Translations under genes and position numbers: made by a program
Shown here: positions 24,445-25,335 of the stretch, one piece after another
Layout of the letters: every line of letters starts with the position of its first letter
Position numbering within the stretch: the first letter of the stretch is position 1
Source of the DNA: a virus
IMG/VR virus record: IMGVR_UViG_3300006332_000577
Location: 1 to 32,460 of that record
DNA: 32,460 nucleotides
Reading direction: 5' to 3' (one strand)
Notes under the pieces: generated by a model
What the model was told of the DNA's origin: nothing
Seen by the model: the letters and a program-made list of their open reading frames with translations, nothing else
The model's database searches: none

Positions 24445-24529
24445 CTGTGAGGGTAGGAGTCGAACCTACAAGTCCCGCCAGGAACACTAGTTAAACAGAC
24501 TAGAGCGTTTACCGTTTCGCCACCTCACA
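24445..24529 (-). tRNA. tRNA with Asn anticodon (GUU) and long variable arm
   Basis: An 85-base cloverleaf. Acceptor TGTGAGG/CCTCACA pairs at all 7 positions; D-stem GCG/CGC; anticodon stem CTAGT/ACTAG with loop CTGTTTA, so U33, anticodon GUU and U37; T-arm GTAGG-TTCGACT-CCTAC; discriminator G73; no CCA encoded. The variable region is 17 bases and can form GTTCC/GGGAC, as in class II (Leu/Ser/Tyr) tRNAs, which is foreign to Asn tRNAs. U1-A72, G73 and GUU match Asn identity elements. U37 is unusual, as position 37 is normally a purine. It lies 8 bases after the synthetase-like gene. Confidence 0.88.
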
Positions 24530-24537
24530 ATGATGCT

Positions 24538-25335
24538 CTATGAGAGAGCATTCATTAGGCGTTGGACTCCTATACCACCACCAGATCTAGGGAAGAAATC
24601 AAAAGAAAGAAACTCTTCGAGTTCTTTCTCTACTCTTTCCTTACCAAATAAATCAATAATTAATTGAGCATACTTACCATCTGATATTGTATAGAAGGTA
24701 TTACGCATCTGTTCTTTGTCGGTACTCCTTTCAGCACTACCGATAGTTTCCATACCACCTAAGATAACATCAATCTTTTTACTAGTACCACTAGGTTCTG
24801 GGAACCTTGACATATTCCAGAAAGGTGATGTCCACTCAGGGAAGTCAGTAATCATACCAGAACCAATTTGTCTTTCATGATCATGATCTAATTCTTCAGT
24901 ATTGAAATGGTCACACCATGCATCATAAGTTCTTTCAACTAATGGTGGTAATCCCATATGCTTACATAGGTCTATCTCCATTTGTTTAAGATCATCTACA
25001 CCGCCATGCATTTCAAACTCAAACATTGGGAATATTGTTTCATGTCTGCCTGGTACAGGATTAGGTTCTGCTCTATATGAAGTAGATAAACAGAAAAATC
25101 CTGGTGCTTCTGGATTTGATAGTAGTTCATATTCCAACCACATCTGTCCTGTCTGTGGTAGTGGCCATATATTACCACCGTAATTGTATGTTGCTACTGT
25201 TTCTGGGTCTTCACATGCAGCAAGTATACTTAATCTATTCTGAGTATGAACTTCTAGGAAACCTCTAGACAAAAAAAATGACCTTAAACGGTCAAGTGTC
25301 GTAGTATATTTTTTTGGGTCTATCAAACTTGTCAT
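24538..25335 (-). CDS. Class II aminoacyl-tRNA synthetase-like catalytic domain (AsnRS/AS-AR type)
   Basis: 265 residues. Motif 2: STSYRAEPNPVPGRHETIFPMFEFEMHG, cut here as YRAEPN (87-92), GRHETIF (96-102), FEFEMHG (105-111), with R88, E90, R97-H98; a GMETIGSAERSTD segment (194-206) like the AsnRS GEIIGGSQRE region; motif 3 GGGIGVQRLMNAL (252-264, R259). This is the Asp/Asn-type class II core. No N-terminal anticodon-binding OB-fold is present, as in archaeal AsnRS-related asparagine synthetase (AS-AR). Either asparagine synthesis or charging of the tRNA just downstream is plausible. ATG at 25335; late motif 22 bases upstream. Confidence 0.86.
   Translation of the reverse strand: MTSLIDPKKYTTTLDRLRSFFLSRGFLEVHTQNRLSILAACEDPETVATYNYGGNIWPLPQTGQMWLEYELLSNPEAPGFFCLSTSYRAEPNPVPGRHETIFPMFEFEMHGGVDDLKQMEIDLCKHMGLPPLVERTYDAWCDHFNTEELDHDHERQIGSGMITDFPEWTSPFWNMSRFPEPSGTSKKIDVILGGMETIGSAERSTDKEQMRNTFYTISDGKYAQLIIDLFGKERVEKELEEFLSFDFFPRSGGGIGVQRLMNALS

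What the first reader, a model, noticed from the sequence alone, without database searches (positions are those of the whole stretch)
24445..25335. A phage synthetase-like enzyme and an aberrant tRNA-Asn encoded as a pair
A catalytic-domain-only AsnRS-type protein (class II motifs 2 and 3 intact, no anticodon-binding domain) is followed after 8 bases by a tRNA with anticodon GUU. That tRNA carries Asn identity elements (U1-A72, G73, GUU) on a body with a long class II variable arm and U37. The two share a late-type motif and lie downstream of a terminator, so they probably form one transcript. Inference: the enzyme may charge, modify or sense this particular tRNA, giving a private asparagine system. 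Alternatively the enzyme is an AS-AR type asparagine synthetase and the proximity is chance.
Basis: partly seen in the sequence, partly recalled or inferred. Interest (0 to 1): 0.85.

Follow-up and report, generated by a model that had tools for sequence, protein, structure and literature searches.

The report
Phage enzyme–tRNA pair tied to pyrimidines
Marine T4-like viruses carry a small enzyme derived from the asparagine tRNA-charging family, always followed by an odd asparagine-type tRNA; cells that carry the same enzyme keep it beside pyrimidine genes and lack the usual first pyrimidine enzymes, so it may be an undescribed way into making DNA and RNA building blocks.

Summary
A 265-aa AsnRS-type catalytic domain (24538-25335, minus) is followed after 8 nt by a GUU tRNA (24445-24529) with U1-A72, G73, U37 and a long variable arm. 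The pair is not chance: the tRNA lies directly downstream in every IMG/VR enzyme locus examined that has the DNA to show it, and 71/71 tRNAs found independently have the enzyme directly upstream. All 57 distinct tRNAs have GUUU at 34-37.

The interpretation changes. The enzyme belongs to an unrecognised family found in bacteria and DPANN archaea, outside the AsnRS, AspRS and AS-AR models. Cellular copies sit beside pyrD, pyrE and pyrF. Of 24 such genomes, 0 have pyrB (141/149 Bacteroidia do) and 2 have carB. Some phages carry a DHODH-like gene, the enzyme and the tRNA in a row. Active-site residues match asparagine rather than aspartate binding, and do not differ between tRNA-bearing and cellular enzymes.

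Best reading: an adenylating enzyme that replaces the carbamoyl-phosphate/ATCase entry to pyrimidines, probably making dihydroorotate from asparagine and CO2, taken up by phages as a nucleotide gene. The tRNA is a strictly linked partner whose role (asparagine carrier, translation or regulation) is unresolved.

The parts
24538..25335 (-). stand-alone AsnRS-type class II adenylating enzyme, 265 aa, PHROG 29758, GenBank 'tRNA ligase' in P-SSM2/5/7
   Evidence: PF00152 E 1.4e-12; phrog_29758 E 8e-156; AF2 model pLDDT 92.8, best PDB match AsnRS-Asn-AMP 1x54 E 2.6e-18
24445..24529 (-). long-variable-arm tRNA, GUU anticodon, U1-A72, G73, U37, CCA not encoded
   Evidence: covariation; model R1 96.6 bits
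24493..24496 (-). GUUU = anticodon 34-36 plus U37, invariant in 57 distinct relatives
24472..24485 (-). variable-arm stem-loop of the tRNA
   Evidence: helix 4; fold
25372..25394 (-). intrinsic terminator between gp23 and the pair
24224..24412 (-). 62-aa ORF of unknown function between the tRNA and purM
23244..24221 (-). purM (AIR synthase), purine gene downstream of the pair on the same strand
   Evidence: PF00586 1.1e-22, PF02769 6e-22

Best explanation
The enzyme is a phage copy of a family of catalytic-domain-only AsnRS relatives that supplies dihydroorotate for pyrimidine synthesis without carbamoyl phosphate and without aspartate carbamoyltransferase. The most economical chemistry (inferred, not shown) is asparagine + CO2/bicarbonate + ATP to dihydroorotate + AMP + PPi: N1 and N3 would come from the two nitrogens of asparagine and C2 from CO2 through an adenylated N-carboxy group, similar in logic to dethiobiotin synthetase. 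T4-like marine phages took the gene up as a nucleotide gene. The tRNA downstream, built on a tRNA-Leu-like body with Asn identity elements, is a dedicated partner that arose once in the phage clade. The reading I favour is that it presents or binds asparagine for this enzyme and is kept off the ribosome by U37. Shown: linkage, distribution, missing pathway genes, neighbours, residue pattern. Inferred: substrate, product and the role of the tRNA.
For: Linkage: tRNA 6-24 nt downstream in nearly all of 82 loci; reverse search 71/71; among isolates the same three phages, P-SSM2/5/7, have both. Pyrimidine role: recurrent neighbours of the cellular genes are pyrF/pyrE (22 loci) and pyrD (19 loci) (families); e.g. 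pyrD-enzyme-pyrF-pyrE-like in the complete Pasteurella atlantica genome. pyrB over cut-off in 0 of 24 enzyme genomes against 141/149 Bacteroidia and 14/14 controls (Bacteroidota alone 0/9, Fisher P 9e-11); carB 2/24; pyrC 0/24 over cut-off. Phage units DHODH-like - enzyme - tRNA (L088, L396-L400). No active-site difference between the tRNA clade and cellular enzymes, so the chemistry is probably the same. Asn-type pocket: TGQMWLE aligns with AsnRS SGQLYAE (Glu), not AspRS SPQLYK; CE, motif 2 R/E/H and motif 3 R kept. Tree: family monophyletic, tRNA rows in one viral clade.
Against: No activity is shown. Bacteroidota carriers keep sub-threshold pyrC-like proteins, so the product could be carbamoyl-aspartate instead. 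Cellular and huge-phage copies work without the special tRNA, so the enzyme does not need it in general. Cyanophages with the pair carry no detected pyrD or pyrF and would depend on host enzymes. Many carriers are incomplete MAGs, and Patescibacteria usually lack pyrB anyway (18/228 have it). Three members inside the viral clade lack a nearby tRNA (L090-L092).
Confidence: 0.55

Rival explanations
1. Private aminoacylation: the enzyme charges the phage tRNA with asparagine through the acceptor stem and long arm, and the tRNA reads AAC/AAU codons during infection.
For: Strict linkage; AsnRS-type pocket; U1-A72, G73 and GUU invariant; phage proteins need much Asn (AT-rich genome, inference).
Against: U37 in 57/57 and C33 in 10/57 distinct tRNAs are poor for translation of ANN codons, where A37 with t6A is the rule (established knowledge). 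No anticodon domain. The same enzyme lies in pyrimidine clusters without any such tRNA.
Confidence: 0.2
2. Asparagine synthetase: like AsnA or AS-AR the enzyme makes free asparagine from aspartate and ammonia; the tRNA link is operon hitch-hiking.
For: No anticodon domain, as in AS-AR; weak similarity to PRK06462 models.
Against: Far below the asparagine-synthetase cut-offs (17.6 of 389 bits); lacks the Lys of Asp-binding pockets and has the AsnRS Glu in all 64 members; does not explain pyr neighbours or the missing carB/pyrB; hitch-hiking does not explain 71/71 linkage in differing phage contexts.
Confidence: 0.1
3. The enzyme is in pyrimidine synthesis, but the tRNA is a regulator, sensor or decoy (for example a target for host tRNA cleavage or a switch for the downstream purM region), not a substrate.
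For: Cellular enzymes do without it; U37/C33 argue against decoding.
Against: Invariant Asn acceptor identity (U1-A72, G73) implies charging or acceptor-end recognition; genes downstream of the tRNA differ among phages.
Confidence: 0.25

Closest known systems
AsnRS (asparaginyl-tRNA synthetase, TIGR00457)
   Same: Class II catalytic core, best structural match, Asn-type pocket residues.
   Different: No N-terminal OB-fold; 15.6 bits against a 342.6 cut-off; long separate branch.
AS-AR / archaeal asparagine synthetase A (PRK06462; PDB 3p8t, 1nnh)
   Same: AsnRS-derived protein without anticodon domain, about 270-340 aa.
   Different: Below all cut-offs; sits with pyrD/E/F instead; Asn-type rather than Asp-type pocket.
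CarAB-PyrB-PyrC entry of pyrimidine synthesis
   Same: Proposed product feeds PyrD-PyrE-PyrF, which neighbour the gene.
   Different: Unrelated fold; the canonical enzymes are missing where this enzyme occurs.
PylRS/tRNA-Pyl and similar dedicated synthetase-tRNA pairs
   Same: Enzyme gene and unusual tRNA gene inherited together.
   Different: Here only one viral clade of the enzyme has the tRNA; no reassigned stop codon seen; charging untested.
asnB-pyrB2-pydC cluster of picocyanobacteria (PMC10119275)
   Same: Also proposed as an alternative pyrimidine route in marine cyanobacteria.
   Different: Uses an ATCase-like pyrB2; no aaRS-like enzyme or tRNA.

Membership tests
AsnRS | class II core with motif 2 and 3 arginines | tested here: met
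   R88, E90, H98, R259 invariant or nearly so in 64 members; AF2/Foldseek
AsnRS | Asn-specific pocket (SGQ..E, not SPQ..K) | tested here: met
   T62 G63 Q64 and invariant E68 align with AsnRS
AsnRS | N-terminal OB-fold anticodon-binding domain | tested here: not met
   265 aa, only PF00152; model has the catalytic fold only
AsnRS | curated family cut-off TIGR00457 | tested here: not met
   15.6 of 342.6 bits
AsnRS | aminoacylation of a tRNA with Asn | not testable with these tools
   needs biochemistry
AS-AR asparagine synthetase | PRK06462 model cut-offs | tested here: not met
   17.6 of 389 bits (window), 19.7 of 322 (L005)
AS-AR asparagine synthetase | Asp + NH3 to Asn activity | not testable with these tools
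   needs biochemistry
canonical tRNA-Asn | GUU anticodon, U1-A72, G73 | tested here: met
   U1-A72 and G73 in 82/82 loci; GUU in all
canonical tRNA-Asn | short variable loop and A37 | tested here: not met
   covarying long arm; U37 in 57/57 distinct tRNAs; body closest to tRNA-Leu
replacement of the carbamoyl-phosphate pyrimidine entry | genes lie with pyrD/E/F | tested here: met
   22 and 19 loci, families confirmed
replacement of the carbamoyl-phosphate pyrimidine entry | carB and pyrB absent where the enzyme occurs | tested here: met
   pyrB 0/24, carB 2/24; base rate 141/149 pyrB in Bacteroidia
replacement of the carbamoyl-phosphate pyrimidine entry | pyrC absent where the enzyme occurs | tested here: inconclusive
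   0/24 over cut-off, but Bacteroidota carriers have 200-260-bit homologues
replacement of the carbamoyl-phosphate pyrimidine entry | dihydroorotate or carbamoyl-aspartate formed | not testable with these tools
   needs biochemistry

The most novel reading that the evidence does not exclude
There is a carbamoyl-phosphate-free route to pyrimidines in which an AsnRS-derived enzyme turns asparagine and CO2 into dihydroorotate, and in marine phages the reaction runs on, or is controlled by, a dedicated non-translating tRNA that carries the asparagine: a tRNA used as a metabolic cofactor by a virus.
Probability: 0.2. Interest if true: 0.97.

Novelty: categorically new. Interest (0 to 1): 0.88.

Why it matters
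De novo pyrimidine synthesis is taught as one universal route from carbamoyl phosphate and aspartate. A small AsnRS relative that stands where carAB and pyrB are missing would be a second entry point, in free-living bacteria, reduced parasites and marine viruses. The phage version adds a strictly linked, odd tRNA, so it offers a direct test of whether a tRNA can serve metabolism or control instead of translation. It also gives a function to a phage gene annotated only as 'tRNA ligase'.

Tried and rejected
Chance proximity: rejected by 71/71 reverse linkage. Simple AsnRS, AspRS, EpmA or LysRS membership: no NCBIfam model near its cut-off for any of 64 members. Hidden special tRNA in cellular or huge-phage genomes: the other R1 hits checked by anticodon were ordinary tRNAs (tRNA-Leu UAA/CAA/GAG and others), all below 70 bits. 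Four-base anticodon calls by ARAGORN (L019, L026, L028): misreadings of 7-nt loops with GUUU. Late promoter shared by the two genes: not above chance. T-box or other Rfam element in front of 17 patescibacterial copies: none. Anti-correlation of enzyme and pyrB inside Paceibacteria: no power (7 and 18 of 228). Literature: ten searches of the open PMC set found no paper on the pair or on an AsnRS-like pyrimidine enzyme; subscription papers were not searched.

Full report
What is there. On the minus strand, after gp23 (25416-26813) and a terminator (25394-25372), lies a 265-codon ORF (24538-25335), then 8 nt, then a tRNA gene (24445-24529), a 62-codon ORF and purM. The phage is a T4-like cyanophage: gp23 is 86-88% identical to Prochlorococcus and Synechococcus myophages. 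The window is a 32-kb viral fragment.

The pair is real and ancient. tblastn finds the enzyme in only three isolated Prochlorococcus phages (P-SSM2, P-SSM5, P-SSM7; 'tRNA ligase') and in two huge-phage types at 47%, but at least 593 candidate stretches in IMG/VR encode a relative. In the IMG/VR loci with enough downstream DNA the tRNA follows directly, whatever else surrounds it: P-SSM7 has it between gp23 and gp3, P-SSM2 beside a lipase gene. A search for the tRNA alone, without reference to the enzyme, gave 80 loci; 71 had upstream DNA and all 71 have the enzyme there. A blastn search with the tRNA in phage records returns the same three isolates; the only other records are the huge phages, whose match is a tRNA-Leu.

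The tRNA. Among 57 distinct tRNAs, U1-A72 and G73 never vary and positions 34-37 are always GUUU; position 33 is C in 10. Helices, the variable arm included, are supported by two-sided changes. The covariance model's next-best matches are ordinary tRNA-Leu genes, so the body looks Leu-derived, with Asn acceptor and anticodon identities. That A37 is never seen, although ANN-reading tRNAs normally carry t6A37, argues against ordinary decoding (inference from established knowledge).

The enzyme family. Profile searches reach cellular genomes at 50-65%: Patescibacteria, Saprospiraceae and other Bacteroidota, Pasteurella atlantica, Midichloriaceae, Dependentiae, DPANN archaea. They are rare (1 of 295 Bacteroidia, 7 of 228 Paceibacteria). 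No NCBIfam model covers the family. Some carriers (P. atlantica, Aureispira, SR1) have a full AsnRS as well. The tree puts the family on its own long branch, and the tRNA-bearing members in one viral clade that also holds three members without a nearby tRNA. The predicted structure (pLDDT 92.8) matches AsnRS with bound Asn-adenylate best. Pocket residues follow AsnRS (TGQMWLE with the Glu) and not AspRS (SPQLYK).

The turn. Clustering the neighbours of the cellular genes shows pyrF/pyrE in 22 loci and pyrD in 19, as close as 23-63 nt and on the same strand in P. atlantica and Midichloriaceae. The carriers lack the usual start of the pathway: pyrB 0/24 over the cut-off (three weak homologues, possibly ornithine carbamoyltransferase), carB 2/24, pyrC 0/24 over either cut-off, against 141/149 Bacteroidia and 14/14 controls with pyrB. 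Within Bacteroidota alone the contrast is 0/9 against 141/148 (P 9e-11). In phages, five IMG/VR contigs and one MAG contig have a DHODH-like gene (PF01180, 7.7e-12), then the enzyme, then the tRNA; another phage relative lies beside what looks like a class II ribonucleotide reductase gene (L091), and the window's pair lies beside purM. So the gene keeps company with nucleotide synthesis in viruses too.

Mechanism. Shown: distribution, linkage, neighbours, missing genes, fold, residue pattern. Inferred: the enzyme makes dihydroorotate (PyrD follows it; P. atlantica has no pyrC) without carbamoyl phosphate. With an Asn-type pocket and a working adenylation core, asparagine plus CO2 plus ATP is the simplest proposal. 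Alternatives on substrate (Asp, carbamoyl-Asp) are open because Bacteroidota carriers keep pyrC-like proteins. Since residues do not differ between tRNA-bearing and cellular enzymes, the phage enzyme probably does the same reaction; the tRNA is then a phage addition: an Asn carrier or activator for the enzyme, a regulator, or a translational tRNA. I rank them in that order, with low confidence.

Novelty. Of the open literature searched, nothing describes the pair or such a pyrimidine enzyme; a picocyanobacterial asnB-pyrB2-pydC cluster is proposed as a different alternative route (PMC10119275). The rating 'categorically new' is for the combination of an AsnRS-derived enzyme at the pyrimidine entry with a strictly linked private tRNA; it is conditional on biochemistry.

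Noticed in passing
L002 (AY939844.2) 3814-3899 versus 5825-5910: GenBank places P-SSM2's tRNA-Asn (PSSM2_199) at 164094-164179, inside PSSM2_205; the real gene is at 162083-162168 right behind the enzyme. Record GU071092.1 has it correctly at 164090-164175, so the older coordinate looks shifted.
   Followed up: yes
L088, L093, L396-L405: Short DHODH-like protein (~230 aa, PF01180) in marine phages; in L088 and L396-L400 it directly precedes the enzyme and tRNA, in L401-L405 it occurs without them within about 6 kb.
   Followed up: partly
L058 and L079, between enzyme and tRNA: Both carry an extra ~85-nt imperfect palindrome (AAAGATGGTCTGAGTATT...GACCATCTTTA) between enzyme stop and tRNA, a possible small inserted element.
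   Followed up: no
L166 6077-6167: GUUU long-arm tRNA with mismatched 1-72 and 2-71 positions and an encoded CCA, in a Methylophilaceae MAG contig that looks phage-like.
   Followed up: no
L139, L142, L157, L158: Copies next to argininosuccinate lyase (argH) in Patescibacteria and Cytophagaceae: a possible link to arginine metabolism, which also uses carbamoyl phosphate.
   Followed up: no
L090: Alphaproteobacterial chromosomal copy between MFS/GNAT genes and htrA-hflCK, nested in the viral clade of the tree, without tRNA or pyr neighbours; a possible phage-to-host transfer.
   Followed up: no
LR756501 (W04) 170000-207000: The 735-kb phage with a tRNA-less enzyme has a large tRNA array including three ordinary tRNA-Asn genes.
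   Followed up: partly
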